In this document: one piece after another, positions 13,800 to 45,878 of the stretch
Layout: every line of letters begins with the position of its first letter
Position numbering within the stretch: position 1 is the stretch's first letter
NCBI GenBank assembly: GCA_030765065.1
Contig: CM060990.1
Span: forward strand, 458,264,321 to 458,328,320
Direction: 5' to 3'
Length of the DNA: 64,000 bases
From: Deroplatys truncata
Lineage: Eukaryota > Arthropoda > Insecta > Mantodea > Mantidae
Translations under genes and position numbers: made by a program
Notes under the pieces: generated by a model
Told to the model about the DNA's origin: nothing
What the model saw: the letters and a program-made list of their open reading frames with translations, nothing else
Database searches by the model: none

Positions 13800-14090
13800 C
13801 CAGTTTTCTCTTGAATGATACCGCAGGCAGACCGCCGCTTCCGGGTTCAAACCCGGCGGAGGGCGATGGATTTTTTCGGGCGTAAAAATCGTTAGCACGG
13901 CTTCCTTCGGAAGGGAAGTAAAGCCGGTGGTCCCGTGTCGTAGATTTACGGCACGTAAAAGAACCTCAAGCCTGATAAAGAGGCCTCTGAGCAAAATTAC
14001 AGGTGTTTCACGCCCAATATAGAATGGGACGCTAAGAACCATAGTAGTTAAAGAGCGTCCATAAATAAAACTCAATTTATTTATTATTAC
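13800..14090 (+). mobile_element. tRNA-derived SINE, uninterrupted copy
   Basis: A B-box-like GGGTTCAAACCC at 13845-13857 is followed by a body ending GGGACGCTAAG, AGTAGTTAAAGAGCG and TCCATAAATAAAACTC, with a TTTATTTATTATT tail. The body matches, with few changes, the sequence interrupted by the Polinton-type element: the 5' part is at 45873-46145 (minus) and the 3' tail at 32376-32400. The head here is more diverged than that of the other copy. This copy matters because it preserves the unoccupied insertion site. Confidence 0.75.
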
Positions 14091-21203: not shown

Positions 21204-22564
21204 CTGCCGTTTGTGAAAATTACAAAACCAAGAAGGAAACGCATGAATTCAATGTATTTAATACCACAGGTTAGGTACATGACAAATAACAAATGATAAA
21301 CTTTTAAAATCTATACATGACCTTTGAGCCCTAATATTCAATATTTGGTGTGGCCTCCATGCGCTGCAATTAGAGCTGCTATACGCCGTGGCATTGAATC
21401 AAAAACGTTCTGAATAAGTTCCTGAGGGATTTCCCTCCATGCAGTTTGTATTCGAATCCACAAATCCGTGACACTGGTTACTGGAGGACCGTGACGCACC
21501 AAGTGCCGACCGACCATATCCCAGACATGTTCGATGGGCAACATCAGGCGAACGTGCAGGCCAGGGAAGCAATGGTACCCGTCGCTCTTCGAAGAAGGCT
21601 TGTGCATTCCTCGCAATATGTGGCCGGGCATTGTCCTGTTGAAATGTGACCTGTGGAGATGCCTGAAGCAGGGGGAGTACCTCAGGCTTTACAACCACCG
21701 TTAGGTACCGGTTGCTGTTCGAGTGCCCTCATTTCGTAGGAGGCGAGATCGGTTGTTGTAATCAATGGAGCCCCAAACCATCACACCTGGTGTTTGTCCG
21801 CTATGCCGCTCAACAATGCAGCCCTCCAGGTTGCGCTCACCACGGTACCGCCGGACACGTATGCGGCCATCACTGCAGAACACGTTGAAGCGGGACTCTT
21901 CCTAAAAGACCACATTTTGCCACTCAGCACTCCAGTGACGGTGTTCACGTGCCCATTGCAGTCGCAGGAGATTGTGGTTTCTGGACAATGGAAGCCGACG
22001 TAATGGCATGCATGCAACCAGTCCAACCTGCAGCAGATGGCGACGAAGCGTTGATGCAGACAAGTTCACACCTGTTGCAGTGCTCCAGCGTCGAGCCAAC
22101 ACTGTGGATGAAGCTGTACGGTCCGTTATGACCATGCGGACAAGATGACGATCATCCCGTGCTGTGGCCATGTTCCGTGGTCCAGTACCCGCTCTTCGAT
22201 GCGTACGACCTTCACATATCCACTGCTTCCACACACGCATCACTGTCGTAGCAGCATGCCCTGTAGGAGCCGAAATGTCACGGTATGACAAACCCGCTTA
22301 CCGCAGACCGATCATTCTGCGCCGTTCGAACTCACATGCCGATATGGCTCCCTTTGATGTCGACGAGGTATACTGTTACATCCTTTATTGTTTCCACCTT
22401 GTTTGACAGCTCTGCACTGGCTATACTAGGCGCTCTTGGCCTACGTGTACCCCATCTCTCTGCAAACCTAATCACTTATTGCTTGCACACTCTTCTACAC
22501 TTGCACCAAGTTTGGAATTATTAGGGAAATTCTTTCTTGGTGTTGCAATTTTCACAAATGGCAG
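21204..22564 (-). mobile_element. Tc1-type DNA transposon, full length, inactive
   Basis: Terminal inverted repeats of about 35 bp: the left end reads CTGCCGTTTGTGAAAATTAC and the right end, reversed, reads CTGCCATTTGTGAAAATTGC. TA precedes the left end at 21202-21203; the right flank is TG, so that duplication has mutated. At 1361 bp it has normal length. The internal gene (minus strand) is broken. It sits inside a TA-rich microsatellite that continues on the other side at 22568. Confidence 0.9.
21338..22350 (-). pseudogene. Tc1-type transposase (DD34E family), broken
   Basis: Minus strand, about 337 codons. N-terminal helix-turn-helix: EFERRRMIGLR, then LSYRDIS (22291 downward). Second DNA-binding helices: RDDRHLVRM and STLRRHLLQVGL. 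Catalytic core: the usual FSDESRF reads F-stop-EESRF near 21900, so the first Asp codon is now Glu next to a nonsense codon. Then PGVMVWGSI, FQQDNARPH (second Asp, about 21630-21650), WPARSPD, a frameshift, and LPIEHVWDMV carrying the third acidic residue (about 21525-21560). The C-terminus is FDSMPRRIAALI ending near 21338. At least four stops or frameshifts. Confidence 0.9.
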
Positions 22565-26270: not shown

Positions 26271-26992
26271 TGAAGCCGGAATTATAAAGGCAATCATTAT
26301 CATAATATTCTGAGAAGGATAGCGATATAAAATAAGTAATGATATATTTAAAATCAGTGTATGTGTAAAAAGGAGAAGCATTGGGAAAATTGTTGACTGT
26401 AAAAGCGACAGAAAGACCAAACAGGCACAGTTTAGCTAATTAGGGACCAGCCTCAGGTAGAAAGGGTAAATACCATTGAAGCAAGTTTTTCCTGGTAACC
26501 GCCGAGGACAGCTGCACTTAGCCTGGTGAAGGCCATTCTAGGCTTCAGGACGAGGTGTTGTGACGAGCGTTTGAGGGGAGAGTAGGGGAAGTAAGTAGCT
26601 TGTTTTTCCTTGTGCAGCGTGGGCAAATTCATTCTGTCCTGAGTGCTTGATGAGGGCGAGAGGACATTCTCGTCGTGTGGAGAAGAATGGTGGCGAACAT
26701 GCTAGAGGGTAGAACGCTTAGCTGTAGTTAATATTCTTCGGTCTTGGTAAAGACAAAGTATCATCGTATGCATTTACAAGTGATCGGCAAACCGCAGCAT
26801 TATTTTAAATAGTGAATAAATGTGTTCTAAGACAGCGTTCGTGTTTCTCTGTACACATTCATGCAGACCCTGAAATTAAGGTTTCATGCTGGAGCAGCCG
26901 TAGCAAAAGAAGAACCATCTAGGAGGAGAAACGCAGCAATCGTGAGGCAAAGGTATTGCTTCGTTGTTGGAGGACGTAGCGTAGCTGCGTCA
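26271..26992 (+). repeat. 5' LTR
   Basis: 722 bp, TG...CA. It contains AATAAA near 26814, a plausible poly-A signal marking the R region. Sequence right after it (TATGGCGTCCTAAGCG) is where the primer binding site should lie; I could not assign the tRNA. Confidence 0.93.
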
Positions 26993-27200
26993 TATGGCGT
27001 CCTAAGCGTGGGGCCCGAACAACGGAGAAGCTGAACGATGGAGACATCAAGGAGGCTCGAATAACGGGGAAGCTGAACAACGGAGAAATCAAGGAGACCG
27101 GAACAACGCGGAGGACAACAGGAGCAGCATCGAAGCAGCAGTTGCAGGCAGCAGATATAAAGGTACTGAGTGTACATTTATTTACGTGTTCCAGTGGTAA

Positions 27201-29084
27201 ATGCAGTTAAGGAACGGTAAAATGTTTGAGCAATCTGATGCAAACATGGAAATTCAGGACGGTGATAGTAGAACTGTGCAGGACGTGAATAGTAGTGTAA
27301 ATAAGGTAGTAGAAACAGTAGACGATAGAAATGTACAAAAACAGGTAGAACAGCCAGGAGGAAGTACGGAAACTAACAAGATGTTAAAGTTAATTATATC
27401 AATGATACAAAATGGTAATCAAAGCTTAAGAGAAGATTTAACAAGAAAAATAGAACAGGGTCAGAAAGATTTAACAGGAAAAATGGAACACGGTCAGAAA
27501 GAATTAAGAGATGAGATGAAAGCTAACCGGGGTGTAACAGAAAACTTGAGAGAAGAATTAACAGGAAAAATAGAACAGGATCAGAAAGAATTGAGGGATC
27601 AGATAAAAGCTAATAATCAAAGTTTAAGGGAGGATTTAATAAGCAACTTAACTGAAATTGGGAAGAAAATTGAGAACCAGCAGAAAGTGTTAGAAAATTT
27701 AAAGGAGGAGGCTAGAAATGAAATAGAAAACATGAGAATTGAGCTTAGGGAGAATCAAGAACAGGTTAGAGAAGAAATTAAAATTGTAAGGCAAGAGATT
27801 AGTGAAAGAGTAGAAAAACAAACCAGAAAATTGAGGGAAGAATTAAGTCAAGAATTAGTTAGAGAAAGGGAAGCTACTAGCAAAGAATTAGAAATATACA
27901 GAAACAGGTTAGAACCGTCTGAAAGAGAAAGTAGGAGACTTGCTGTAGGGGTAGATGATATAAATGATAGACTTAAGGAAGGGTTAGAAAAAGTGTGCAT
28001 ATCAGACAATATTGGTAGTTCAGCATGTAGCAATGTGCTCAGTGCAACAGTAAGGAACGATGCATAGCAGAATGCGTCAGCTGACCTTCCAATGCTGAAT
28101 TTAAGTCCAAGTACCACCAATAACAGTAGTAGTACAAATGAAAATAGAAATGGCGGCCCACCTTTTCAATGGCCTAACCATGTTCTCAGTGAAATTTCAC
28201 CACCGATTTTTGAAGACGAGGAATCAGATAATCCGAAAGCATTCATAAATAGCATGCAGGAATATTTTAATGTTAAGGGTATACCAGAGGAATACAAGAT
28301 GGCTGTAGTACGAAAATGTTTTAAAGGTAATGCTTTCAATTGGCTGGAATTATATGTAGGGCTAGATAACAATTACGGGGCCTTTAAAGAGCTATTTCTG
28401 AACAGATATTGGGGTGCAAGCAGGCAAGCGAATATACGATTAGAACTCAGTAATGGCAAGTACGATTCCCGTAAGGACCAATCTATGGTGAATTATTTCA
28501 TGGTAGTGGCAAGGAAATCTAAGATGCTAGATCCACCGATGGGAGAAAATGAATTAATAAATCTAGTAACCGCGCACTTTCCGGAGACAATACAAAACTA
28601 CATAATTATTGCAAAACCGGTTAAGATAGCAGCCATGATAGATTTGTTGATCGCTTTAGAAAGGAAGAGAAATCGAGATGGCGTCTTTAAGGATAGGATT
28701 TTCACACAGAAAGAAAGAAGTCCTACAAATTTTTTCGGGCAGGGGGCATATCCAGGAAATGATAGAAATTTTGATGTGAGCGTTAGATACCATTGTCCTG
28801 TACCGAAAAATAATTACAATGATAACAGGAGGAGAAATAACTTTGAAAATAATTATAGGGGAAGAGGCGAAAACTACCGAAGACGGAACGCACAAATAAA
28901 TTATGTGCATACTCACAGATGTAATTATGATAGAATGGAAAGGTATCCTAGAAACAGACGCTATTCTGGAGATGATTGTAGCAATAACTATGACCATAGG
29001 TATAGACCAAGTTCACCAAGACAGGAACGAAAAGTACAAGTGGGACGAATTCACCAGTTCAAGAAGATAGGATTGACGCAATAA
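27201..29084 (+). pseudogene. Gag polyprotein of the LTR element, one in-frame stop
   Basis: A single reading frame starts at ATG 27201 and runs to the stop at 29082-29084, about 627 codons, broken only by a TAG at 28065-28067. The first 288 codons are a long, charged coiled coil with repeated LREDL/KIEQ/KELRD heptads (codons about 70-250). After the TAG comes the capsid-type Gag region (PPIFEDEESDNPKAFINSM, then MVVARKSK and PETIQNY). It ends with an Arg/Asn-rich basic tail (RRRNN, YRGRGENYRRR, YPRNRRYSG) with no CCHC zinc knuckle. It would assemble the particle and bind genomic RNA. Confidence 0.85.
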
Positions 29085-29282
29085 ACTCTACAAGACAAAT
29101 AATGGGAAATAATTACCGTCATGAAACGAAAACAGGACATTCGCATAACGATATTGGGACAGGAGCAATTAGTAAAGTGTCGGAAAACTCCAAACCCAAT
29201 CAACTTCGCCTTCAGTGAAGATTGGGAACAACAATTCCTATAATGAGCGGTACACGAAAAGTAGGAATAATGGAAGGCAACT

Positions 29283-29735
29283 AATGATAGAGAAACATCA
29301 GCAGGGAGAGATAGGCCAGAAGAAAGCGAAGTCTTAACTGATCCACCAAGGATAAATATTGGCATTAATGGCAAACAATTTCGTGCAGTAATAGACACCG
29401 GCGCCAACACTACAGTTTATTCCCAAAATGTTTATGAAGAATTAATAAACAGAGGTTTAAAATTAATGTCTTTACCAGTACATGGAATATATTGTTCAGT
29501 AGCAGTGGGTAAAAGAAAAGAAAGGGTAAGATTTCAGGCTATGATGAATATTGAAATCGGAAAGCAAATTATTGAGATGTTATTTTTAATAGTACCTAGG
29601 CTTGTAACAGGCATAATAATAGGTTGTGATAGTCTATACTCATGGAACTCCATTATAGAGTTTGAAAACAAAATTTTGAAGCTCGAAACAGAACAAGACA
29701 CCATAATCGTACCATTCATTGTTGGACGACAGTAG
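29283..29735 (+). pseudogene. retroviral-type aspartic protease of the LTR element
   Basis: The frame reads through INIGINGKQFRAVIDTGANT, the active-site DTGA at 29394-29405, followed by the flap region and TGIIIGCDSL, the typical second conserved block of retropepsins. It is in the same frame as Gag but separated from it by stops between 29085 and 29280. Its end overlaps the start of the next open frame by 17 bases in a +1 register, consistent with frameshift expression in the ancestor. Confidence 0.85.
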
Positions 29736-30812
29736 TTCAGGAATAATTGCCCGGGATCAGGTAGAGGAAGAAATAAAAGGGGAAACATTCTTTGTGGAAG
29801 TTATAAACATTGGAGCTATGAAATTAGCCGAAGTAAGGTTAGAGGATTGCCATGAAATTAATGAAGAAAATATAATCTGCGGAGAACATGAGAAATTTTG
29901 TATTAATAACGGCGAAGAGAAACCCCAAGGAAATCCAAGATTAGGCTTGAATGATAAGAATGCAACTAAGTACGATAAAGTGGATGGCTGTGTCGAAATA
30001 GAAAATTTGTTGAAAAATAAGGTGAACCAGGCTTGTAGACTGAAAGAGAAACAAAAGAAGGAATTATGGGAAATTTTAATGAATAATAATAAGGAAGTGT
30101 TTTCAGAAAAGCCGGGAAGGTGCATAAATTACACCCATTCATTTGAAATGACTGATATTAAACCATATGCACATCGTAGTAAGATATTCAGGGAGACTTT
30201 AAAGAATCAGAATATAAAACTCTATCATTGTTCCTCTTATTTTCCATCTGGGAATCCCGCAGAACGCATATTGAAGGACATTGGAATCTATTTTCGTGTA
30301 CTGACTCATGATAATCACAGAAATTGGGTAAGGTATTGTATTGTGATAGAAAAGATAATAAATAACATCATCAATACGACGACAGGATTTGCACCAATAC
30401 AGCTAATGCAAGGAATTGAACCTGAACCTATTTTTAAAGAAATACCCAAAACGATTGAAGGAAACCAATCACCACCATCTGAAGAACAAAGGGCTAAAAT
30501 TGTTATTGACAGGTTAAAAGAAAAAGCAAAAAACGGAAATCTAAAGTGAAGAAGCGAAAGCATAAGTGGGAACCGAAAATAGGTGACCTTGTGCTTGCCA
30601 GAGATCACAAATAATCCAGCGCATTAAAAGTAAGAAATCATAGATTAGAGCACTTATATAAAGTCCCGGTAATTATTACTGCTAAATTTGGGGAACATAC
30701 TTTTGAATTAGTAGGTGTAAAAACTAATAAATCTATTGGTAAATGGCACAAACAACCTATGAGACCTTATAGAAAATCATTGAATGCTCCTGATAAAATA
30801 CAAAAGGTGTGA
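29719..30812 (+). pseudogene. Pol remnant: RT N-terminus fused in frame to integrase C-terminus
   Basis: Open from 29719 to 30549 (276 codons), then, after a one-base frame change near 30540, to the stop at 30810-30812 with one more stop near 30613. Residues 1 to about 156 are the linker and first RT segment, ending HSFEMTDIKPYAHRS. The sequence then passes directly into integrase, KIFRETLKNQNIKLYHCSSY and GNPAERILKDIG, which lies around and past the third catalytic residue. It ends with the basic C-terminal integrase domain (GDLVLARDHK, LYKVPVIITAKFG). Missing are the RT palm with its catalytic Asp pair, RNase H, the integrase zinc domain and its first two catalytic Asp. The deletion kept the frame. 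Confidence 0.88.
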
Positions 30813-31353
30813 ATTTTCTGAGAAACGTTAACATGAATATAGAAATGTCATTAGGTTATGAAAATTGTAAAATAAATATAAGAGAAATAGTGAAGTGAAA
30901 GTGATCAGTGAACAATGTGTAAGTGAAGTGAGAAAGAGAATAATATTCTCAAAGAAACAAAAACAAAAACAAAACAAAAACAGATACTCCAACCAGAATA
31001 ACAGGAAACAAAATATAATAATTGTTTAAATTCGAATACTGTAAGTTATTGAGTGCAAATTTTGTATAATAATGTTTAATTTAAATGATGATGTTAGTGA
31101 ATGTAAATTTTGTATAGTAATGCTTAAGGTGAATCATGTGAAGGGTAAGTCATATGTATGTCCAACATAATTGTAGAGGTAACATAATTGTAAACAGTGT
31201 AAAGAAATTTATATGTTGACGAATTGTAAAAGAATCATGAAACCAATTCAAGGTTTGCCGATCGATCACGAAATTACTGAGAGGAAATTCTTTCGGGCAT
31301 GACATATACATTGTAATATTATTGTACAATATGAAGTGTATATGGGGGGCATT

Positions 31354-32064
31354 TGAAGCCGGAATTATAAAGGCAATAATTATCATAATATTCAGAAAAG
31401 GATAGCGATATAAAATAAGTAATAATATATTTAAAATCAGTGTATGTATAAAAAGGAGAAGCATTGGGAAAATTAATGACCGTAAAAGCGACAGAAAGAC
31501 CAGACAGACACAGTTTAGCTAATTAGGGACCAGCCTCAGGTAGAAAGGGTAAATACCATTGAAACAAGTTTTACCTGGCAACCGCCGAGGACAGCTGCAC
31601 TTAGCCTGGTGAAGGCCATTCTAGGCTTCAGGACGCCGTGTTGTAACGAGCGTTTGAGGGGAGAGTAGGGGAAGTAAGTAGCTTGCTTTCCTTGTGCAGC
31701 GTGGGTAAATTCATTCTGTCCTGAGTGCTTGATGAGAGCGGGAGGACATTCTCGTCGTGTGGAGAAGAATGGTGGCGAACATGCTAGAGGGTAGAACGCT
31801 TAGCTGTAGTTAATATTCTTCGGTCTTGATAAAGACAAAGTATCATCGTATGCATTTACAAGTGATCGGCAAACCGCAGTATTATTTTAAATAGTGAATA
31901 AATGTGTTCTAAGACAGCGTTCGTGTTTCTCTGTACACACTCACGCAGACCCAGAAATTAAGGTTTCATGCTGGAGCAGCCGTGGCAAAAGAAGAACCAT
32001 CTAGGAGGAGAAACGCAGCAATCGTGAGGCAATCATTGTTGGAGGACGTAGCGTGGCTGCGTCA
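31354..32064 (+). repeat. 3' LTR
   Basis: 711 bp, colinear with 26271-26992 except for scattered substitutions and loss of 11 bases near the end (GGCAATCATTG here). Followed by ACAG, the target duplication. Confidence 0.93.
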
Positions 32065-32375: not shown

Positions 32376-32400
32376 AATTGAGTTTTATTTATGGACGCTA
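32376..32400 (-). mobile_element. SINE 3' tail, cut off by Polinton insertion
   Basis: AAATTGAGTTTTATTTATG plus GACGCT is the reverse complement of the SINE tail at about 14059-14081. The rest of this SINE copy lies on the far side of the 13.5-kb element (45873-46145). Confidence 0.85.
32395..32400. other. left 6-bp target site duplication (GACGCT)
   Basis: GACGCT directly precedes the terminal AGTAGG. The same hexamer follows the other terminus at 45873-45878, and only one copy is present in the uninterrupted SINE at 13800-14090. Confidence 0.9.
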
Positions 32401-33740
32401 GTAGGTTATTTAGGAGAGATCTGCCACACTTTTTGGGCATATATGGGAAAGGATAGGGAAAACGAGGCTGGATGGGGCGGTCCAAGGAGAAAAATGGGTT
32501 TATATGGGAGAGATAGGGAATACGAAGACCGATACTAGGCTAGACAGGGTTGAAGGACGGTAGTGCGTTTACATGGAAGAAATAGTTGAGACACGTTAGA
32601 CTAGACAGAGGTTGAGTGTAGAGTATGTGTTTATATGTATGAGAGGTATAGGAACAGGAGGAGAGGTGTTAGGCTAGACAGAGGTTGAGTACAGTATGGT
32701 TTATATGAGTGGTATAGGAAAACGAGGAGAGATATTAGACTAGACAGGGCTTGAAACGTAGTGTATGGTTTATATCAGAGGTATAGGAAAACGAGGAGAG
32801 GTATTAGGCTAGGAGAGTTTGAGTATGTGTTTATAAGGAGAGACGAGAAAACGGAGAGAGATCCTATGTTAGGACAGATAGGCGTTAAAGGTAGAATGTG
32901 CTTTATATAGATTAGATAGGAAACCAAGGAGGGATACTCAGCTAGACAGGGGCGGGAGAGGAATACGCTGTATGAGAGGTAGGGGATACGGGGAGTGGTG
33001 TTAGGATAGACAGAGGTTTAGAGTAGAGAATGCATTCATATGTATGAGGGGTATAGGAACAGGAGGAGAGGAATTAGGCTAAGGAGGTTGAGTATGCGAT
33101 TATAGGGGGAGACGAGAAAACGGAGAGATCCTCAGCTAGACAGGAGCAGGAGGTGAATGCGCTTTATGAGAGGTAGGGTTACGGAGAGAGATGCTAGACT
33201 AGACTGAGGTTTAGAGTAGAGTATGCGCTTATATGTATGAGGGGTATAGGAACAGGTGGAGAGATATTAGACTAAGGAGGTTGAGTGTGAGTTTATAAGG
33301 AGAGATGAGTAAACGCAGAGATCCTATGGTAGGATAGACAGATGTTAAAGGTAGAATGTGTTTTATATGAGAGGTATAGGAAACCAAGGAAGGGTGCTCA
33401 GCTAGACAGGGAGCAGGAGGGGAATACGCTGTATGAGAGTTAGGAATACGAGGAGAAATGCTAGGTCAGGCAGATGTTGAGGTCTATAGTATGTGTTTAT
33501 TGGGGGAAGATAGGGAAGATGCTAGGCTAGACAGGGTTGAATGAGGGTAGTGCGTTTATATGGAAGAGATAGTTGAGATACGTTAGACTAGACAGAGGCT
33601 GAGTGTAGAGTATGCGTTTATATGTATAGAGGTATAGGAGCAGGAGGAGAGGTGTTAGGCTAGACAGATATTGAAGGATTAGCAATATGAATTTATATAC
33701 AGGAGAGTTAGGGAATAGGAGGGGAGGTACTTGACTTTGA
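32401..33740. repeat. terminal field of degenerate repeats, left arm
   Basis: Recurring words TTTATATGAGAG, GGTATAGGAA, ACGAGGAGAGAT, TTAGGCTAGACAGGG and GTAGAGTATG follow one another in roughly 70-85-bp imperfect units, well over a dozen times. The mirrored field is 44530-45872. No coding content is supported. Confidence 0.8.
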
Positions 33741-33819
33741 AAGCGACCTTAGACGAGAACTTCCTGATAAGCTGTTTGTTGTCAATGCTAGGACACAAAT
33801 TCTAGACAGCTGCAGCACG

Positions 33820-34125
33820 TAGCCCAGTAAGGGAAAAAGGTGGCCCACAAAGGGAAAAAGGTGATCCGCAAAGGGAAAAAGGTAACCCAGAAAGGGAAAA
33901 AGGTGACCCGCAAAGGGAAAAAGGTGACCCAAAAGAGAAAAAAGGTGACCCGCAAAGGGAAAAAGGTGACCCATAACGGGAAAAAGGTGACCCACAAAGC
34001 GAAAAAGGTGACCCGCAAAGGTAAAAAGGTGACCCACAAAGGGAAAAAGGTGACCCATAAAGGGAAAAAGGTGACACACAAAGGGAAAAAGTGACCCATA
34101 AAGGGAAAAAGGTGACCCACTCACA
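33820..34125 (+). repeat. 21-bp tandem array, left arm (about 15 units)
   Basis: The unit is GGTGACCCACAAAGGGAAAAA with variants at the CACA/CGCA/CATA position; one unit is 20 bp. Because 21 is a multiple of three, several frames stay open: a Lys-rich KGKKVTH repeat on the plus strand and Phe/Pro/Leu-rich repeats on the minus strand. These open frames look like a consequence of the repeat rather than genes. Confidence 0.95.
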
Positions 34126-34960
34126 TTAACAGGTAAGTAATTCAGTTAGTATCTCAGGGTAGGACAGATCCCAGGAAGCGGATATAGCATAGTTCCGTAT
34201 GATGTTACAGGTAACTCAGATAGTATCGTGGGTATTTAGGATATTTCAACTATCATAGGTGTTTAGAGTCACTCAGCTAGTACCACAGGAGGCTAGATTC
34301 CAGAGACAGAGCGTATCATAGCTGTATATGATTTCACAGGCATTCAGCTAGTATCGAGAGCATTTAAGCTAATTCAGCTAGTATCACAGGAGGCTAGATT
34401 CCAGAGGCTGACTGCATGATAGCTGTGATGATTTCACAGGTAATTCAGCTAGTATCGTAGGTATTTAGGCTAATTCAGTTAGTATCACAGGAGGATAGAT
34501 TCCAGGTGTTGGGTATTGCATAGTTTCGTATTTCACAGATAGTTCAGGTAATATCATAAGTATGGGGTAATCAGCATAGTTTCACAGATATTGTTGATAA
34601 TTTCGATCTGCGATTTGTATCATAGCTATTTAAGGTAATTACAGGTGATTCAGGTTGTATCAAAGGTATTTGAGGCATTTAACAGATAATTCAACTAGTA
34701 TCATTGATATTTAGTTAAACTTGATAGTAACACAGCTGGCTGTGCTACTTTGGAGCAGGGATTCGTATCAGAGCTATTTAAGGCAATTTCACATGGTTCG
34801 GGTGGTATCACAGGTATTTAAGTCATTTTAACAGGTAATACAACTAGTATCACAGGTATTCATGGTAATATAGAGAGTAATTAGATTATAAACATTTCTC
34901 ATCCAACGTTACAACAATTTATATACTTTTTTTCTAAATCTTACAAACTTATTATATGTT
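34126..34960. repeat. second field of degenerate repeats, left arm
   Basis: Recurring words: TTCAGCTAGTATCACAGG, GGTATTTA, CACAGGTAATTCA and GGCTAGATTCCAG. They are arranged as irregular units of about 35-60 bp. The mirrored field is 43330-44115. Confidence 0.75.
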
Positions 34961-35037
34961 AAACAGTTATTGTACAATGCGGAGTGGCATAAACCGCATA
35001 TTGGTTCACAAATTGAAAAGGTTTGCGTCAACATACC

Positions 35038-35043
35038 TTTATT
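35038..35043 (-). terminator. poly-A signal candidate for left pol copy
   Basis: AATAAA on the minus strand about 205 bases past the stop codon of the left pol copy. It mirrors the candidate in the right arm. Confidence 0.4.
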
Positions 35044-35247
35044 TTAGTTCGTTGTAGGTGTCTCTCCCCTTTTGTCTAGGCTTGAGACTAGCACTAGGAT
35101 TGCTCCTAATGGTAGGGTCACCACCTTCCCTTCCATCTTCTTCTTTCTTCATCGGGCGTCTGCTAGTTGCATACACAGCACACGGATAAACTTCATTTTT
35201 AAGATTGTAGACTCACGAGAAAACCTTCATCTTCGACTTACATTCTC

Positions 35248-38164
35248 TTAAGCACTGTTTGTAATACTGTAATGTCCATACGCATAGGTAGTTATTCCAT
35301 CCTCAGCAATAACTCTTTTATCATCAAAGGGATTCAATGTAATTTTATTCACTTGCACTGTGGTAACAGCATGCTTTCGTGATAGGATTAGATTCATGGG
35401 CGTTCTGATGATTTCACAGGTTTTAAGACAGTCTAAATAGCTGTCAACCGTAACGTACTGCTTCATAGCGCTGCGTTTTATACCTTTAATGTTTTTATCA
35501 TTGAGCCGTGGATATCTAGTGCATACATCTTTGGTCGTAGTCCGACAAAGCGCTGGATGATTTTACCATTAGCCTCATCTTTAAATTTTCCCAACACCTT
35601 CTTGTTTAGAGCTGAATAACATATGTGGTTGACAGGGTAATAAGCAGTATTCAGATGCTCATGAAAACGTAACTTGTCCTGGTACACATCTTCAGTTGTT
35701 ACACGATGAATGAATGAATCAGTGTCCATATACATAAGCTTCAGGTTTTCAGCTCCATAATAAGTCAACAACACGTCGTAATGATAGTGATACATTAATG
35801 TCTTGGAGATGTCCAACACGATTCATGCCAATGTATATAGGCTTGTTGAACACAATGTCACGAGAGGCTATATGTACAGCAGCTAGATTAGCAGCATATA
35901 TTGTCCTATCAATAAACGTAGGCTTGGCGATCAACTTTTCCAGAGTCTTCTCGTTTGTTACTAGTCGTATATCCACATGGTTACGCAGATTCTCCATAGT
36001 TTTTGCAAACATGGCGTTGTTAAAGAGCTTGTAGAGATCCTTCTCGAAGTCATTTGCAGCTTGTTGTCGTAGTCTGTTGTTAAATTCCACATAAGGTTTC
36101 AACCATCGAGACTGTTGGAATTGTAGCACACGACGGATTTTTGTTAGTCGTAGTCCATGACTAAGAGCCTGCTTCAAAGCCATGTAATGCACTACATACT
36201 TCTTTCGAGGACCAAGATGGGGTATCAGTTTCTTTGTAGTTGAGTCCGTAGGTTTCATGCACTCAGGCAGGAAAGGAAGATCGTTGTGTAGATCGTGAAG
36301 TTCTGCAGGATACTCGATGTCGACTTCTAATATGTAACCATGAGAATCATCTTCTTGTAGTCTTTCTAAGTTGATGTCTTCAGTCAAAACCCACTGAAAT
36401 CCACCAAAAGGAAGGGCGTGACACATTGCCCACCCATATCGGTTATTAGCGTCCTCGTATGTGATAAATTGGGTTGGTCTCGACGGATCAAACGTCTCCA
36501 TATAAGTGTTATTAGCCTCTGCATATCGATGGGAAACTTGGCATAAACCTCCTCTTATACCTGATTCCACCATGAGTAGCTGATCATAATCTTGTAACAG
36601 CTCCAGCTTAATTCCAGTATACAGTAACATTGCATCCCATGCAAGCCCTGGAGAGGTAAAATAATGTACAGGATCAACTTTGTGTTTTGAGGGTTTGCTC
36701 TCTGAACGTTTCAAATACATCAGATAGAAGAAGCACATCTGAAGTTAAGTAGAGATCGCTGTACTCGCCTAGGTTTCTCACATTAAATAACTCCCAAACA
36801 TTTCTAGCATGATCGTAGTCAGTATCAGTAATTTCTTCTTCATTTAATCTATTGTAGAAGGAGTCCTTAGGAGGCAAGCAGGTCTGGTTCAAAACATCCC
36901 ATGACGTAACAGAATCATATGGAAATACACCCTTACGGATCATCAACTTCAATTTATCTTCTCCAAAGTACTTTAGTGTTTCAGGATATGAGGTTAGATT
37001 TTTTACCAACTTATCCAAGCTTGTACTGAGGAATCGAAAGCTATCCACAAACCGAAGCTTTATATCTCCTACATACATGGTGAATGAGATATAGCTTTCT
37101 TCAGAGTTAGGAATTACCTCCACACGTTCACTTGTACAACCCAGCTCCTTGACAATGAAATGCGAGTCATGTCCGCTAAGGTTATGCATGAAGATAGGAA
37201 CATATTTAGGTGTTTTGCATGCTAAATTGCATTCATTATGAAGACTTCCACGATATTCACCACTGATGTGATCATGATCGCGTACTTTGTAGTTTTCTCC
37301 TGTAAAGGGGTTTCCACACAAGTAGCATACTGTAGATGACTCAAAATCCTTTTGTTGCTTGTGGGTAAGTTTCAGAGGCTTGGCAGATTTGTATATGTCA
37401 TCAATCTTTGTTGCAAGAGATGTCAGATATAGCATAAACTTCTGAGCAGCATCAACACCACGATATACATAAGGTTGCTTAGGAAGACCAGTTTCGAGAT
37501 GTTCAACACTGCATGACGGCTTCACGTAAACACAGAAGCTCATTGGCGAGTGCTCTTGATAAGAGGTTGTATAGGAAGTTTCAGGATTGGGTATACACTT
37601 ATGGCATGGAGTGAGAATACTCTCAAAATCAGCATAGATGACATAAGGTACTTTCAGCATCCTCTCAACATTTTTAAACTGTACAATTGATTTATGCTTG
37701 GTAGGCATACCTACCCTTGCAACACCATGTTGAATACAGACGGCTGCAGGTTCTTGTAGTTTTTCCGGTTCACTTCGTCCATATCGATCAGCAAAGTGTG
37801 TAAAGCAGCGCTTACAGGTATAAACACGTCCATTATGGTTAGTTTTCTGACGTCGAACGAGTTTCTCAAAATTCTTTATATACGCGTAGTGATGTTTTCC
37901 ACTACTATCATTCAATAGTAGCAGGTCACAGTGTTCAGGTAGTTCAATGTCAGCAGCCTTTATCGGATACACTTCGGGCTTCTCATCCAGTCCGAAAACG
38001 TTGATAGACAGCTTGTTAAGCTTCTCAAATTTAGGTATTTGAGAAAGTGGAGTAGGGTAAGAAACACAGCTGAAGTCGTACTTATCTTGAAGTTGTTTGT
38101 ATTTGCTGACGCGTTGTGCATTCTTCTCAACGAATTTGGCCAGTATAGAATACATGAAAAATTT
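35248..38164 (-). pseudogene. polB: family B DNA polymerase, left copy, N-terminally truncated
   Basis: It reads leftward and starts abruptly at FFMYSILAKF; about 245 N-terminal codons present in the right copy are absent. In the upstream 38165-38302 the frame stays open by chance. Exonuclease motif I is YADFES (about 37622-37640). Next come CYLCGNPF...DHDHISGEYRG (a treble-clef, endonuclease VII-like motif, about 37225-37330), exo II (HNLSGHDSHF, about 37160) and exo III (YLTSDVLLL, about 36740). Polymerase motifs: A, YEDANNRYG (about 36450); B, LFNNAMFAKTMEN (about 36000-36035); C, MYMDTDSF (about 35715-35735). The stop is at 35248. Frame breaks lie near 36680, 35822 and 35490. All catalytic Asp codons are readable, but the protein is not continuous. 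Confidence 0.92.
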
Positions 38165-39348
38165 TAGGTTCTGTAATAATAATTTATAGGTTCTGTAATG
38201 AGCGATTAATGCTGTATATAATTCCCAATCAGTTGTGCTTGGTTCGAATCCCCATCTTTTAATGGCTTCCCTAATTTTCCTATATACTCTAGAATATATC
38301 ACGTATATTGATAGCGTAACTGCATACAGCTTTGTTTAACATGTCAAGCTAATATCATAAATTATTTTGTTCCTGGTGTTCTGGGTTCGAATACTGATTC
38401 AATGAAATTTACTTGCAAATTTAACAACTCGTAATTTTATTTAGATATACACGTCAAGTAAACCCTAAACAGAGTACCTAGTCCCTAAATATCGTTATAA
38501 CAAAAATCACTTTAAAGTACTCAGATCGAATCCCGAAGGGGTGATTTCGTATATCTTCAAGCCTATAACCATATCAATTTGGAGTAAAGATTAAATGGTT
38601 GATGCTGATTCGGGGAAGGTAAATTACTAAAAATACATTTATTAAAAGTATTACCGAGTTCGATTCTAGAAGCTTAGAATCTGCATAACTCTGGAAACAT
38701 TGCTATGCTCGTGATTGTAGTGAAATGTAATGGTCTTTCTGAAAGAAGATGGAAAGCAAGAATTGAAAAGGGAATGAAAACATTAAATAATACAGTATAT
38801 ACATACATTTAACTAAATAAGGGGGGAAATCTTCTACGTTATCTTTTAAGCGTTTACTTTAGGTATTGTGATAATAGAGCTGGAGTTAACCTTGGTACAA
38901 TAGGTGGTGATGGTGGTGGTGGTAGGATTTGAATTTGAAATATATGCATGAATGAGCGTGTGAGAATACTTCTTTTGCTGGTGTGACAGCATAAGCAGCT
39001 AGTTATGAGACGAGTTTAAACGTGTTTGATGCTGTCAGACATCCTGTCTCTGGGTGTGACGTCATAAACATCCTGCTTCTGGGCGTGAGTTTATATGGCT
39101 GAGGTTAATACACGTTGAGCGATCATATACAGCTGGTTATGGAGCGAGTTTATGATTGATCTAAAAGGTTCGTGCTCCCTCTATAAATATGGTGATCTAT
39201 GGCATTGGACTTCATTGTGCTAATTAGTCTTGAGGTGTTAACATCGTGTTCTCTCCAAGAATAATCAGCTTTCTAAAGTGTTATCAAGGTGAAGAGGTCT
39301 ATATTTCCCTTGAGCAGTGATTAATACGTTATTACATCAAGAATAAAG
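38165..39348. other. unique core between the arms
   Basis: Non-palindromic sequence ahead of the plus-strand pol. It contains four B-box-like words (38229, 38384, 38522, 38655), a GGT-rich run near 38905-38930, and two pairs of imperfect direct repeats at 38990-39160: CAGCTAGTTATGAGACGAGTTTA versus CAGCTGGTTATGGAGCGAGTTTA, and ATCCTGTCTCTGGGTGTGA versus ATCCTGCTTCTGGGCGTGA. The core promoter is annotated separately. Confidence 0.6.
39057..39220 (+). promoter_or_regulatory. core promoter of the plus-strand pol gene
   Basis: TATAAATA at 39183-39190 lies about 31 bases ahead of an initiator-like TTCATTG (A at 39214), the usual metazoan RNA polymerase II spacing. A perfect TGACGTCA palindrome at 39057-39064 is a CREB/ATF-type site about 125 bases further upstream. 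The leader to the ATG at 39349 would be about 135 bases. No matching promoter is present for the truncated left copy. Function is inferred from motif spacing only. Confidence 0.6.
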
Positions 39349-42300
39349 ATGAATAACTCAGCGTATAAGGATATTATTCCAAGCGCTACTGGATACGCTT
39401 GCGGAAAATGTGGGAAGAAGTTCCTCCGAGGTTATCACAAGAGAAGACACGAAATGTCTTGTAAGAAGCTCTTCAAATGTAAACATTGTAGCTTGACCTT
39501 CAATGATGGTTATAAGGGGCAGCGACACGAGGATGTATCTGAAATAAGCAGTCCTCAGAAGAAAAGAAGATTGGAGCCAACTAAACATCAGCTATTATCA
39601 ACAATGGAGGACTGTGACATGAAAGAATATGAAACTTCATTCGAAGGACGATTGAAATCGTATTTTATACGATGTGAATCACCTAAGGACCTGCATATGT
39701 ATCTGCATGAGGCAACACAACGGATTATCCAGGCTGTGCATAAAGAGCTTAGCATTCATAAGAGTGTTAAAATTAATCTGCTAGCCGAGTGCCGATTTGT
39801 AAACAGTATCGCAGAAACTCGTGACAAAACATCCAAAACACGGAATCAGCCTGTGTTTCTAGAAACGGATCTGGACTCATCGTTAAAAGCGAAATTCAAG
39901 AAATTGGTGACTGAAATGGAGGAGTCTCAGCTTAAGGGTAGCAACTGGGCTTTGCTTGCTGTGGAAGGAGTTCGCCTTCGTATCAACAAGTACAATCCGT
40001 TACGAGGAAGTAGCTACATACCACTACCGTCATCTGTTGAAGCAAGGAAAGCGTGTATAAACATTCAGAACTTTAGTGATGAGAAATTTTTCATGTATTC
40101 TATACTGGCCAAATTCGTTGAGAAGAATGCACAACGCGTCAGCAAATACAAACAACTTCAAGATAAGTACGACTTCAGCTGTGTTTCTTACCCTACTCCA
40201 CTTTCTCAAATACCTAAATTTGAGAAGCTTAACAAGCTGTCTATCAACGTTTTCGGACTGGATGAGAAGCACGAAGTATATCCGATAAAGGTTGCTGACA
40301 TTGAACTACCTGGAGACTGTGACCTGCTACTATTGAATGATATTAGTGGAAAACATCACTACGCGTATATAAAGAATTTTGAGAAACTCGTTCGACGTCA
40401 GAAAACTAACCATAATGGACGTGTTTATACCTGTAAGCGCTGCTTTACACATTTTGATGATCGATATGGACGAAGTGGACTGGAAAAACTACAAGAACAT
40501 TCAGCCGTCTGTATTCAACATGGTGTTGCAAGGGTAGGTATGCCTACCAAGCATAAATCAATTGTACAGTTTAAAAATATTGAGAGGATGCTGAAAGTAC
40601 CTTATGTCATCTATGCTGATTTTGAGAGTATTCTCACTTCATGCCATACGTGTATACCCAATCCTGAAACTTCCTATACAACCTCTTATCAAGAGCACTC
40701 GCCAATGAGCTTCCGTGTTTACGTGAAGCCGTCATGCAGTGTTGAACATCTCGAAACTGGTGTTCCTAAGCAACCCTATGTATATCGTGGTGTTGATGCT
40801 GCTCAGAAGTTTATGCTATATCTGACATCTCTTGCAACAATGATTGATGACATATACAAATCTGCCAAGCCTCTGAAACTTACCGACATGCAACAAAAGG
40901 ATTTTGAGTCATCTACAGTATGCTACTTGTGTGGAAACCCCTTTACAGGAGAAAACTACAAAGTACGCGATCATGATCACATCAGTGGTGAATATCGTGG
41001 AAGTCTTCATAATGAATGCAATTTAGCATGCAAAACACCTAAATATGTTCCTATCTTCATGCATAACCTTAGCGGATATGACTCGTATTTCATTGTCAAG
41101 GAGCTGGGTTGTACAAGTGAACGTGTGGAGGTAATTCCTAACTCTGAAGAAAGCTATATCTCATTCACCAAGTATGTAGGAGATATAAAGCTTCGGTTTG
41201 TGGATAGCTTTCGATTCCTCAGTACAAGCTTGGATAAGCTGGTAAAAATCTAACCTCATATCCTGAAATACTAAAGTACTTTGGAGAAGATAAATTGAAG
41301 TTGATGACCCGTAAGGGTGTATTTCCATATGATTTTGTTACGTCATGGGATGTTTTGAACCAGACCTGCTTGCCTCCTAAGGACTCCTTCTACAATAGAT
41401 TAAATGAAGAAGAAATTACTAATACTGACTGCGATCATGCTAGAAATGTATGGGAGTTCTTTAATGTGAGAAACCTAGATGAGTACAGCGATCTCTACTT
41501 AACTTCAGATGTGCTTCTTCTATCTGATGTATTTGAAACGTACAGAAAGCAAACTCTCAAAACACACAAAGTTGATCCTGCACATTATTTTACCTCTCCA
41601 GGGCTTACATGGGATGCAATGTTACTGTATACTGGAATTAAGCTGGAGCAGTTACAAGATTATGATCAGCTACTCATGGTGGAATCAGGTATAAGAGGAG
41701 GTTTATGCCAAGTTTCCCATCGATATGCAGAGGCTAATAACACTTATATGGAGAAGTTTGATCCGTCGAGACCAACCCAATTTATCACATACGAGGACGC
41801 TAATAACCGATATGGGTGGGCAATGTGTCACGCCCTTCCTTTTGGTGGATTTCAGTGGGTTTTGCCTGAAGAAATCAACTTAGAAAGACTACAAGAAGAT
41901 GAATCTCATGGTTACATATTAGAAGTCGACATCGAGTATCCTGCAGAACTTCACGATCTACACAACGATCTTCCTTTCCTGCCTGAAGGCATGTAACCTA
42001 AGGACTCAACTACAAAGAAACTGATACCCCATCTTGGACCTCGAAAGGAGTATGTAGTGCATTACATGGCTTTGAAGCAGGCTCTTAGTCATGGACTACG
42101 ACTAACAAAAATCCGTCGTGTGCTACAATTCCAACAGTCTCGATGGTTGAAACCTTATGTGGAATTTAACAACAGACTACGACAACAAGCTGCAAATGAC
42201 TTCGAGAAGGATCTCTACAAGCTCTTTAACAACGCCATGTTTGCAAAAACTATGGAGAACCTGCGTAACCGTGTAGATATACGACTAGTAACAAACGAGA

Positions 42301-43000
42301 AGACTCTGGAAAAGTTGATCGCCAAGCCTACGTTTATTGATAGGACAATATATGCTGCTAATCTACTGCTGTACATATGGCTTCTCGTCAGATTGTGTTC
42401 AACAAGCCTATATACATTGGCATGAGTGTGTTGGACATCTCCAAGACATTAATGTATCACTATCATTACGACGTGTTGTTGACTTATTATGGAGCTGAAA
42501 ACCTGAAGCTTATGTAAATGGACACTGATTCATTCATTCATCGTGTAACAACTGAAGATGTGTACCAGGACAAGCTACGTTTTCTTGAGCATCTGAATAC
42601 TGCTTATTACCCTGTCAACCACATGTGTTATTCAGCTCTAAACAAGAAGGTGTTGGGAAAATTTAAAGATGGGGCTAATGGTAAAATCATCCAGCGCTTT
42701 GTCGGACTACGACCAAAGATGTATGCACTAGATATCCACGGCTCAATGATAAAAAAAATTAAAGGTATAAAACGTAGCGCTATTAAGCAGTACATTACGT
42801 TTGACAGCTATACAGACTGTCTTAAAACCTGTGAAATCATCAGAACGCCCATGAATCTAATCCTATCACGAAAGCATGCTGTTACCACAGTGCAAGTGAA
42901 TAAAATTACATTGAATCCCTTTGATGATAAAAGAGTTATTGCTGAGGATGGAATAACTACCTATGCGTATGGACATTACAGTATTACAAACAGTGCTTAA
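39349..43000 (+). pseudogene. polB: family B (protein-primed type) DNA polymerase, right copy, full length but broken
   Basis: About 1,217 codons from ATG 39349 to the stop at 43000. Residues 17-60 are two Cys/His zinc fingers (CGKCGKKF..., CKHCSLTF). Next come a family-specific N-terminal region (GSNWALLAVEGVRLRI, NPLRGSSYIPLP) and a third finger (CKRCFTHF, about 362-390). Exo I is YADFES (Asp 424, Glu 426), the endonuclease VII-like CYLCGNPF...DHDH motif is about 524-560, and exo II is HNLSGYDSYF (about 570-580). Exo III is YLTSDVLLL (about 41496), motif A DANNRYG (41795), motif B FNNAMFAKTMEN (42220) and motif C MDTDSF (42518). Breaks: frameshift at about 41250, nonsense at 41994, frameshift at about 42365, nonsense directly before motif C at about 42515. 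Polymerases of this kind replicate linear, protein-capped DNA in Polintons and related viruses. Confidence 0.93.
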
Positions 43001-43033
43001 GAGAATGTAAGTCGAAGATGAAGGTTTTCTCGT

Positions 43034-43210
43034 GAGTCTACAATCTTAAAAATGAAGTTTATCCGTGTGCTGTGTATGCAACTAGCAGACGCCCGATGAA
43101 GAAAGAAGAAGATGGAAGGGAAGGTGGTAACCCTACCATTAGGAGCAATCCTAGTGCTAGTCTCAAGCCTAGACAAAAGGGGAGAGACACCTACAACGAA
43201 CTAAAATAAA
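43034..43210 (+). CDS. possible small basic ORF after pol
   Basis: An open stretch of about 58 codons lacks a clear ATG at its start; a Met sits at about the 20th codon. It includes TSRRPMKKEEDGREGG and SLKPRQKGRDTYNELK, is rich in Lys/Arg, and stops inside the AATAAA. The same frame is open in the left arm (about 35040-35215, minus) with few substitutions. It could be a small basic protein, a spliced extension of Pol, or chance. No family is recognised. Confidence 0.25.
43205..43210 (+). terminator. poly-A signal candidate for right pol copy
   Basis: AATAAA about 205 bases after the pol stop. Confidence 0.4.
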
Positions 43211-43329
43211 GGTATGTTGACGCAAACCTTTTCAATTTGTGAACCAATATGCAATTTATCCCTCTCCGCATTGTACAATAACTGTTTAACATATAATAAG
43301 TTTGTAAGATTTAGAAAAAAGTATATAAA

Positions 43330-44115
43330 TTGTTGTAACGTTGGATGAGAAATGTTTATAATCTAATTACTCTCTATATTACCATGAATACCTGTGATAC
43401 TAGTTGAGTTACCTGTTAGAATGACTTAAATACCTGTGATACCACCCGAACCATGTGAAATTGCCTTAAATAGCTCTGATACGAATCCCTGCTCCAAAGT
43501 AGCGCAGCCAGCTGTGTTACTATCAAGTTTACCTAAATATCAATGATACTAGTTGAATTATCTGTTAAATGGCTCAAATACCTTTGATACAACCGGAAAC
43601 ACCTGTAATTACCTTAAATAGTTATGATACTAATCGCAGAACGAAATTATCAACAATATCTGTGAAACTATGCTGATTACCCCATACTTATGATATTACC
43701 TGAACTATCTGTGAAATACGAAACTATGCAATACCCAACACCTGGAATCTATCCTCCTGTGACACTAACTGAATTAGCCTAAATACCTACGATACTAGCT
43801 GAATTACCTGTGAAATCATCACAGCTATCATGCTGTCAGCCTCTGAAATCTAGCCACCTGTGATACTAGCTGAATTAGCTTAAATGCTCACGATACTAGC
43901 TGAATTGCCTGTGAAATCATATACAGCTATGATACTCCCTGTCTCTGGAATCTAGCCTCCTGTGATACTAGCTGAGTGACTCTAAACACCTATGATAGTT
44001 GAAATATTCTAAATACTCACGATACTATCTGAATTAACTGTAACATCATACGGAACTTTGCTATATCCGCTTCCTGGGTTCTGTCCTACCCTGAGATACT
44101 AACTGAATTACTTAC
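43330..44115. repeat. second field of degenerate repeats, right arm
   Basis: Mirror of 34126-34960. It carries CTGTGATACTAGCTGAATTA, TAAATACCT and CTGGAATCTAGCCTCC words in irregular units. Confidence 0.75.
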
Positions 44116-44122
44116 CTGTTAG

Positions 44123-44460
44123 TGTGAGTGGGTCACTTTTTCCCTTTATGGGCTACCTTTTTTTCTTTGTGGGTCACCTTTTTCCCTTTATGGGTCACCT
44201 TTTTCCCTTTGCGGGTCACCTTTTTCCCTTTGTGGGCCACCTTTTTCCCTTTATAGGTCACCTTTTTCCGTTTGCGTGTCACCTTTTTCCCTTTTGGGTC
44301 ACCTTTTTCCCTTTGTGGGTCACCTTTTTCCGTTTGCGGGTCACCTTTCTCCCTTTGTGGGTCACCTTTTTCCCTTTGTGGGTCACCTTTTTCCCTGTGT
44401 GGGTCACCTTTTTTGCTTGAGTGGGTCACCTTTTTCCCTGACTGGGCTACGTGCTGCAGC
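44123..44460 (-). repeat. 21-bp tandem array, right arm (about 16 units)
   Basis: Mirror of 33820-34125. The order of unit variants and the unit number differ from the left arm: this array has CACACAGGG, CAAACGG and CACTCAAGC variants that the left array lacks. The array has therefore rearranged since the arms formed. Open frames across it are repeat artefacts. Confidence 0.95.
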
Positions 44461-44529
44461 TGTCTAGAATTTGTGTCCTAGCATTGACAACAAACAGCTT
44501 ATCAGGAAGTTCTCGTCTAAGGTCTCTTT

Positions 44530-45872
44530 CAAAGTCAAGCACCTCCCCTCCTATTCCCTAACTCTCCTGTATATAAATCCATATTGCTACTCCTTCAGTA
44601 TCTGTCTAGCCTAACACCTCTCCTCCTGTTTCTATACCTCTTATACATATAAACGCATACTCTACACTCAGCCTCTGTCTAGTCTAACGTGTCTCAACTA
44701 TCTCTTCCATATAAACGCACTACCCTCATTCAACCCTGTCTAGCCTAGCATCTTCCCTATCTTTCCCCAATAAACACATACTATAGACCTCAACATCTGC
44801 CTGACCTAGCATTTCTCCTCGTATTCCTAACTCTCATACAGCGTATTCCCCTCCTGCTCCCTGTCTAGCTGAGCACCCTTCCTTGGTTTCCTATACCTCT
44901 CATATAAAACACATTCTACCTTTAACATCTGTCTATCCTACCATAGGATCTCTGCGTTTACTCATCTCTCCTTATAAACGCACACTCAAACTCCTTAGTC
45001 TAATATCTCTCCACCTGTTCCTATACCCCTCATACATATAAACGTATACTCTACTCTAAACCTCAGTCTAGTCTAGCATCTCTCTCCGTAACCCTACCTC
45101 TCATAAAGCGCATTCCCCTCCTGCTCCTGTCTAGCTGAGGATCTCTCCGTTTTCTCGTCTCCCCCTATAATCGCATACTCAACCTCCTTAGCCTAATACC
45201 TCTCCTCCTGTTCCTATACCCCTCATACATATAAATGCATTCTCTACTCTAAACCTCTGTCTATCCTAACACCACTCCCCGTATCCCCTACCTCTCATAC
45301 AGCGTATTCCTCTCCCGCCCCTGTCTAGCTGAGTATCTCTCCTTGGTTTCCTATCTAATCTATATAAAGCACATTCTACCTTTAACGCCTATCTGTCCTA
45401 ACATAGGATCTCTCTCCGTTTTCTCGTCTCTCACTTATAAACACATACTCAAACTCTCCTAGCCTAATACCTCTCCTCGTTTTCCTGTTCCTCTCATATA
45501 AACCATACACTACGTTTCAAGCCCTGTCTAATCTAATATCTCTCCTCGTTTTCCTATACCACTCATATAAACCATACTCTACTCAACCTCTGTCTAGCCT
45601 AATACCTCTCCTCCTGTTCTTATACCTCTCATACATATAAACGCATACTCTACACTCAGCGTCTGTCTAGTCTAACGTATCTCAATTATCTCTTCCACAT
45701 AAAGGCACTACCCTCCTTCAACCCTGTCTTGCCTAGTATCGGTCTTCGTATTCCCTATCTCTCCCATATAAACCCATTTTCCTCCTTAAACCGCCCCATC
45801 CAGCCTCGTTTTCCCTATCCTTTCCCCATATATGCCCAAAAAGTGTGCCAGATCTCTCCTAAATAACCTACT
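44530..45872. repeat. terminal field of degenerate repeats, right arm
   Basis: Mirror of 32401-33740. It carries TCTCCTCGTTTTCCTATACC, CTCATATAAAC and CCTGTCTAGCCTAA words in 70-85-bp imperfect units, and ends at the CCTACT terminus. Confidence 0.8.
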
Positions 45873-45878
45873 GACGCT
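45873..45878. other. right 6-bp target site duplication (GACGCT)
   Basis: Second copy of GACGCT, directly after the terminal CCTACT and followed by the continuing SINE body (CTTTAACTACTATGG). Confidence 0.9.

What the first reader, a model, noticed from the sequence alone, without database searches (positions are those of the whole stretch)
32401..45872. Integrated inverted dimer of a Polinton-type replicon: 13.5-kb near-palindrome with two pol genes
Seen: termini AGTAGG...CCTACT, arms of about 5.8 kb in inverted orientation, each containing most of a family B polymerase gene, and a unique core of about 1.9 kb. Known: Polintons/Mavericks have 5'-AG termini, 6-bp target duplications and protein-primed PolB, but their TIRs are usually far shorter and the element carries integrase, protease, ATPase and capsid genes. 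Inference: here both ends derive from one parental terminus and the breakpoint lies inside pol. A copy-back (snap-back) replication product of a linear protein-primed DNA, like defective genomes of adenovirus-type replicons, would look like this. An integrase supplied in trans would then have inserted it with a normal 6-bp duplication. An integrated dimer of this kind would be a new type of non-autonomous Polinton.
Basis: partly seen in the sequence, partly recalled or inferred. Interest (0 to 1): 0.93.

Follow-up and report, generated by a model that had tools for sequence, protein, structure and literature searches.

The report
Integrated double-ended Polinton with duplicated polymerase
A virus-like jumping element in what is probably an insect or related genome went into the chromosome as a near mirror-image molecule made of two copies of its polymerase end, probably the trace of a replication accident expected of such linear elements.

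Summary
It is flanked by the 6-bp duplication GACGCT, and a related host repeat in the window (13842-14084) shows the uninterrupted empty site, 243 bp gapless with one GACGCT. So the whole unit went in as one integrase-type insertion. The only recognised gene is a Polinton/adintovirus-type family B polymerase, full length from core into right arm, truncated in the left arm at the arm edge. The two copies differ as neutral DNA does (dN/dS 1.15, 95% 0.65-2.48), their frame breaks lie at different places, and changes split 8:9 between arms, so the arms were alike at insertion. Most likely: an inverted-end duplication made by template switching (copy-back) in protein-primed replication, inserted by integrase supplied in trans. 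End joining of two broken molecules, or a resident family with 5.8-kb terminal repeats, is not excluded: the host genome search did not complete.

The parts
32394..32399 (.). left 6-bp target site duplication GACGCT
32400..38164 (-). left arm (5,765 bp): inverted copy of the right arm; carries a 5'-truncated pol gene
32400..35262 (.). left subterminal part without recognised gene: about 69-bp and 193-bp repeats, 21-bp minisatellite (33829-34120), 101-bp repeats; terminal 1.7 kb strongly G/A-rich on the + strand
35263..38164 (-). left pol copy, homology begins at the arm edge; reading frame changes three times with one of four queries, twice with two, once with one
38165..40083 (+). unique core: upstream region with TATA-like box at 39182-39189 and the first ~245 codons of pol
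38165..38199 (.). junction stutter: a 13-bp sequence repeated with 22-bp period, starting at the first base of the core
39349..43000 (+). right pol copy, from start codon to stop position: zinc-finger-like N-terminus, Endonuclease_7-like motif, DNA_pol_B_2; frame changes twice, plus two in-frame stops not in the left arm
40084..45872 (+). right arm (5,789 bp)
43001..45872 (.). right subterminal part, mirror of the left, including the 21-bp minisatellite 44128-44439
45873..45878 (.). right 6-bp target site duplication GACGCT
13842..14084 (-). paralogous empty site: host repeat copy continuous across the insertion point with one GACGCT

Best explanation
It is a defective, integrated derivative of a Polinton/adintovirus-type linear element in which one end was lost and replaced by an inverted copy of the polymerase end. 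Shown: two like ends in inverted orientation, a full-length and a truncated pol, an asymmetric junction, and a single insertion with 6-bp TSD and a matching empty site. Indicated by the pattern of differences: arms alike at insertion, neutral decay since. Inferred mechanism: a strand primed by terminal protein at the pol end was copied inwards through pol to the point now at 38165. The polymerase then jumped to the displaced strand behind the fork, about 1.9 kb nearer the end (40084), and copied back out to the same terminus. That gives a linear inverted dimer with a single-copy loop, the core, and two proper termini. Integrase from a complete element put it into the chromosome. Because the core keeps a promoter-like box and the pol N-terminus, where relatives are proposed to carry their terminal protein, the dimer may have been able to replicate itself before integration.
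For: Arms 97.0% alike, sharp inner edges; empty site and 6-bp TSD. Left pol homology begins at the arm edge (38164 with two of four queries, 38158 with the other two) while the right copy runs on into the core, as expected if the longer arm is parental and the shorter one is copied back. Neutral divergence: N 51 / S 12 over 942 codons, dN/dS 1.15 (0.65-2.48); a ratio of 0.3 would give so many N with P 3e-6. Derived residues 8 right, 9 left, 5 unresolved of 22. Frame changes at different places in the two arms. A 13-bp repeat begins at the first core base (0 of 20,000 shuffles) and resembles the sequence just inside the right breakpoint (edit distance 3; 147 of 5,000 shuffles and 35 of 1,598 real 40-mers do as well), as templated stuttering would leave. 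A pol relative lies on a contig with integrase and A32-type ATPase. The first ORF's model matches adintovirus, MELD virus and adenovirus polymerases among its best viral hits, with low TM-scores.
Against: No parental element was found in the searches that ran, and the own-genome search did not complete. A plain local alignment across the junction is not significant (1,016 of 3,000 shuffles and 47 of 140 other core 60-mers do as well); no base at the join is shared by both sides; 13-bp repeats of period 8-60 form 16 clusters in this window. Templated filler is also made by end joining. Equal arms at insertion would also follow from homogenised terminal repeats of a resident family. Divergence along the arms outside the 21-bp satellite is only just compatible with evenness (P 0.067, the outermost bin highest with 22 of 471). 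One residue that is the same in 27 of 27 aligned relatives is replaced beside the breakpoint in a stretch identical in both arms, so the parental polymerase may already have been impaired.
Confidence: 0.55

Rival explanations
1. Two linear molecules (or sister copies) broken 7.7 and 5.8 kb from the pol end were joined head to head by host end joining, with a short templated filler, before integrase inserted the product.
For: Same anatomy; join without shared bases and with short repeat-type filler; end joining, and arm replacement after breaks, are documented in the linear chromosome of Streptomyces (PMC5869714, passages).
Against: Needs two broken molecules and loss of both remainders; copy-back needs one event. 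Nothing in the sequence decides between them.
Confidence: 0.22
2. A resident family: the parental element already has about 5.8-kb terminal repeats with pol in them, and this is one ordinary decayed copy.
For: Arms alike at insertion is what terminal repeats of any replicating linear element would show; one pol copy runs full length.
Against: In 134 intact vertebrate Mavericks terminal repeats are 46-1,447 bp, mean 402 (PMC8097293, passages); one pol copy is truncated in mid-gene; no integrase, ATPase or capsid ORF seen among ORFs of 110 aa or more in the element. The one relative contig has pol once and no inverted repeat over 48 bp in the 15.5 of 17.4 kb examined; its ends may be missing.
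Confidence: 0.15
3. Two separate molecules each inserted their pol end at the same target in one concerted integration, and their inner ends were joined afterwards.
For: Also gives one TSD and inverted like ends.
Against: Needs a bimolecular integration complex plus repair; less economical. Not tested.
Confidence: 0.05
4. Assembly artefact (fold-back or mis-join of paralogous copies).
For: No reads were available; a 100%-identical 316-bp tandem elsewhere in the window could be a local assembly duplication.
Against: Arms differ at 171 sites plus 14 gaps, with polarised changes about equally in both; both flanks belong to one continuous host repeat and share the TSD.
Confidence: 0.03

Closest known systems
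Polintons/Mavericks and adintoviruses
   Same: 5'-AG start, 6-bp TSD, family B polymerase with a relative on a contig that also has integrase and A32-type ATPase; size within the 12.7-24.6 kb of intact vertebrate Mavericks (PMC8097293, passages) and near the 13.3-14.6 kb of Drosophila-associated adintoviruses (PMC8363768, passages)
   Different: no integrase, ATPase, protease or capsid gene recognised; inverted repeats of 5.8 kb; pol twice, once truncated
Defective adenovirus genomes with duplicated ends; snap-back/copy-back defective genomes (recalled, from no call)
   Same: both ends from one parental end, inverted, with a short unique loop
   Different: here integrated in a host chromosome with a target duplication
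Streptomyces chromosomal arm replacement (PMC5869714, passages)
   Same: linear DNA with terminal proteins; a lost end replaced by a copy of the other; loss of the terminal-protein genes decides whether linearity can be kept
   Different: bacterial chromosomes, mostly homologous recombination, not transposons
Galileo/Foldback transposons (start of an abstract in listings)
   Same: long, internally repetitive inverted ends
   Different: P-element-type transposase according to that abstract; no PolB (recalled)

Membership tests
Polinton/Maverick | 6-bp target site duplication | tested here: met
   GACGCT on both sides and empty site with one copy
Polinton/Maverick | 5'-AG...CT-3' termini with short terminal repetition | tested here: met
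   AGTAGG...CCTACT, close to but not identical with the (AGT)2 motif given in PMC8097293
[quoted passage not shown]
   PF03175 in 4 of 7 pieces, three above the curated cut-off and one just below; adintovirus, MELD virus, adenovirus and mavirus polymerases among the 13 viral fold matches at E 0.001 or better, model pTM only 0.38; no PDB fold match at that level, the best weak ones being Y-family polymerases. Family by sequence is met; protein priming itself was not tested
Polinton/Maverick | retroviral-type integrase gene | tested here: not met
   ORFs of 110 aa or more in the element are pol pieces or frames in the 21-bp minisatellite; shorter remnants not searched for
Polinton/Maverick | packaging ATPase, protease, capsid genes | tested here: not met
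   as above; so not a complete Polinton, at most a defective derivative
Polinton/Maverick | terminal repeats of hundreds of bp | tested here: not met
   about 5.8 kb, against 46-1,447 bp in intact vertebrate elements
Copy-back defective genome | both ends from one parental end, asymmetric junction, unique loop | tested here: met
   the parent itself was not seen
Copy-back defective genome | formed by template switching in replication | not testable with these tools
   junction filler suggestive only; plain alignment not significant

The most novel reading that the evidence does not exclude
The inverted dimer was a self-sufficient minimal replicon: two active termini around one complete polymerase gene with its own promoter and (putative) terminal-protein domain. 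It would have multiplied as a linear polymerase-only satellite of a Polinton, borrowing only integrase (and perhaps capsid) from its parent, and would form a family of such dimers in this host.
Probability: 0.2. Interest if true: 0.82.

Novelty: new variant of a known kind. Interest (0 to 1): 0.64.

Why it matters
Protein-primed replication of Polintons is, as far as I recall, largely inferred from their polymerase. An integrated inverted-end dimer would be physical evidence that a free linear intermediate existed, could switch template or be rejoined, and could still be inserted with ordinary ends, one end type serving for both. If more copies exist, Polintons would have an equivalent of defective interfering genomes, readable as fossils in chromosomes.

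Tried and rejected
Extra homology beyond the inner junction: a local alignment is not significant (1,016 of 3,000 shuffles; 47 of 140 other core 60-mers); the narrower motif test is only suggestive. tRNA/SINE-like origin of the core: spaced B-box-like motifs were seen, but the four segments are not convincingly related (best of six pairs: 21 of 500 shuffles as good), and ARAGORN (bacterial code) and Rfam (gathering scores) found nothing in the window. Core upstream part against the relative contig by tblastx: nothing convincing (best E 0.09). Relatives by protein pattern or terminal sequence in viral contigs and genome contigs: one distant contig only. Host identity from the neighbouring retrotransposon's gag-like ORF: one unnamed relative only. 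PDB by sequence gave zinc-finger proteins only; the PDB fold search gave no match at E 0.001 or better, its best weak hits being Y-family polymerases. NCBIfam: 0 of 4 pieces matched. My first dN/dS count (N 54, S 12, 1.22) included about 20 codons read out of frame and was replaced; an apparent left-arm stop lies in those codons and is not counted.

Paper searches (open-access library only, titles and starts of abstracts seen) listed no report that I could recognise of an integrated inverted-end Polinton dimer. I saw passages of five papers, none in full; the rest only as search listings.
Full report
What is there. The element runs from 32400 to 45872 (13,473 bp) between two copies of GACGCT. 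The two ends start with 24 identical bases. Aligning the arms gives 5,588 matches, 171 mismatches (96 transitions, 75 transversions) and 14 gaps in 36 columns; the alignment ends at 38164 and 40084, leaving a 1,919-bp core. In each arm the outer 2.9 kb holds no recognised gene and is rich in tandem repeats; the terminal 1.7 kb has a GC skew of +0.522 at the left end and -0.525 at the right end on the + strand, i.e. the same sense relative to each end.

Insertion. A self-comparison of the window found a host repeat at 13842-14084 that matches the right flank (13842-14059 to 46090-45873, 93.6%) and continues into the left flank (14054-14084 to 32399-32369); the two matches overlap by exactly six bases. 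The joined flanks with one GACGCT align to this copy over 243 bp without a gap. This is a paralogous empty site. It fixes both boundaries and shows that the palindrome entered as one unit: a duplication made later inside the chromosome would not be expected to put a complete end and a target duplication on both outer sides.

The gene. The only recognised gene is a family B DNA polymerase (PF03175 in 4 of 7 pieces, three above the curated cut-off), with zinc-finger-like N-terminus and an Endonuclease_7-like motif. The first right-arm ORF found 136 relatives, 120 listed. The closest (58%) is unnamed; named ones include Nilaparvata lugens (47%), Rhodnius prolixus (49%), aphids, odonates and spiders, but also a mussel and corals. 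The host is probably an arthropod; it was not identified. In viral contigs one 17.4-kb contig encodes a relative (32% in the best segment of this ORF, 46% for a later piece) next to an integrase core domain and a Pox_A32-type ATPase. The predicted structure of the first ORF (mean pLDDT 78.5, pTM 0.38) matches, at E 0.001 or better, 13 viral proteins, first a protein of Drosophila-associated adintovirus 2 and a MELD virus polymerase; adintovirus, adenovirus and mavirus polymerases follow, and two of the top four are labelled structural proteins of densovirus/parvovirus records. TM-scores are low, and the PDB gave no match at that level, with Y-family polymerases as best weak hits. This supports the family, not details.

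Asymmetry. The right copy starts at 39349, 167 bp after the first base of a TATAAATA box, and homology runs from the core into the arm to 42985, near the stop at 42998-43000. The left copy's homology begins at 38164, the arm edge, with two of four queries and at 38158 with the other two, although the searched stretch went on into the core. So core plus right arm read as continuous parental DNA, and the left arm is an inverted copy of its outer 5.8 kb. A published analysis proposes that the N-terminal part of polintovirus PolB may be the terminal protein (PMC4061559, passages). Only the right copy has the first ~245 residues.

History. In codons that are in frame and free of indels the two pol copies differ by 51 non-synonymous and 12 synonymous changes over 942 codons: dN/dS 1.15 (95% 0.65-2.48), as expected without selection (P 0.76), while a true ratio of 0.3 would give this with P 3e-6. 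Coding and non-coding parts differ alike (2.4% and 2.8% outside the satellite). Of 22 amino-acid differences in the first shared ORF segment, 8 look derived in the right arm, 9 in the left, 5 unresolved (16 relatives used of 120 listed). By homology the right copy changes frame twice (three of four queries; once with the fourth) and has two in-frame stops absent from the left; the left changes frame three times with one query, twice with two, once with one. The changes lie at different places in the two arms. The simplest reading is that the arms were alike, and pol open over this stretch, when the element was inserted, and that decay came later. Caveats: divergence along the arms is only just even (P 0.067, outermost bin highest), and a residue that is the same in 27 of 27 aligned relatives is replaced beside the breakpoint in a stretch identical in both arms, so the parental enzyme may not have been fully normal.

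Junction. The core's first 13 bases recur 22 bp further on (0 of 20,000 shuffles; but 16 clusters of such repeats exist in the window). The repeated unit resembles the right arm's sequence just inside the breakpoint (edit distance 3; 147 of 5,000 shuffles and 35 of 1,598 real 40-mers do as well), although a plain local alignment is not significant. No base at the join is shared by both sides. This looks like a short templated stutter before the switch, but it is weak evidence, and end joining can leave the same.

Mechanism (inference). In strand-displacement replication from a protein-primed end, the displaced strand lies free behind the fork. A nascent strand that leaves its template and lands on that strand will copy back to the end it came from, leaving a loop equal to the distance between take-off (38165) and landing (40084). 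The anatomy fits in the respects that can be checked here: like ends, one longer arm that reads as parental, loop single-copy and continuous with it. Head-to-head joining of two broken molecules fits too; I weigh copy-back higher because it needs one event and its template is at hand. The insertion step is shown by TSD and empty site; integrase in trans is inferred from the absence of an integrase ORF of 110 aa or more.

Compared with what is known. Intact vertebrate Mavericks have terminal repeats of 46-1,447 bp (mean 402), 6-bp TSDs and eight conserved genes, seven in Xenopus tropicalis (PMC8097293, passages). This element shares ends, TSD and polymerase and lacks the rest, so it is a derivative of that kind, not a complete member. 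Replacement of one end by a copy of the other is documented in Streptomyces (PMC5869714, passages), where keeping or losing the terminal-protein genes decides whether the chromosome stays linear; the dimer here keeps one full-length pol. Similar defective adenovirus genomes are recalled, not looked up. Ten paper searches listed no integrated case that I could recognise.

Limits. The host genome search did not complete (13 attempts), so parent, copy number and recurrence of the breakpoint are unknown; these decide between accident and family. No reads were available.

Noticed in passing
26271-32064: LTR retrotransposon with 94.6% identical LTRs (TG...CA, ACAG on both sides); of four of its ORFs (27201-30549) given to Pfam one matches aspartyl protease, one weakly (below cut-off) a Ty3-type capsid, none a reverse transcriptase. 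It ends about 335 bp left of the dimer; purine-rich sense strand.
   Followed up: partly
15698-16323: 316-bp unit twice, 100% identical: a very recent tandem duplication or an assembly duplication
   Followed up: no
1134-2006 and 21338-22297: transposase fragment PF13843 (piggyBac type by recall) and a Tc-type transposase fragment (PF01498 in 21902-22297; the other ORF there had no match)
   Followed up: no
4309-5897 and 16894-17517: copies of one repeat in direct and inverted orientation, 84-90% identical
   Followed up: no
40084-40090 and 38158-38164: right at the inner breakpoint both arms carry a change at a position that is the same in 27 of 27 aligned relatives; why the switch point and this site coincide is unexplained
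   Followed up: partly
33829-34120 and 44128-44439: 21-bp minisatellite in both arms that differs by about one unit between them and is the least similar part of the arms
   Followed up: no
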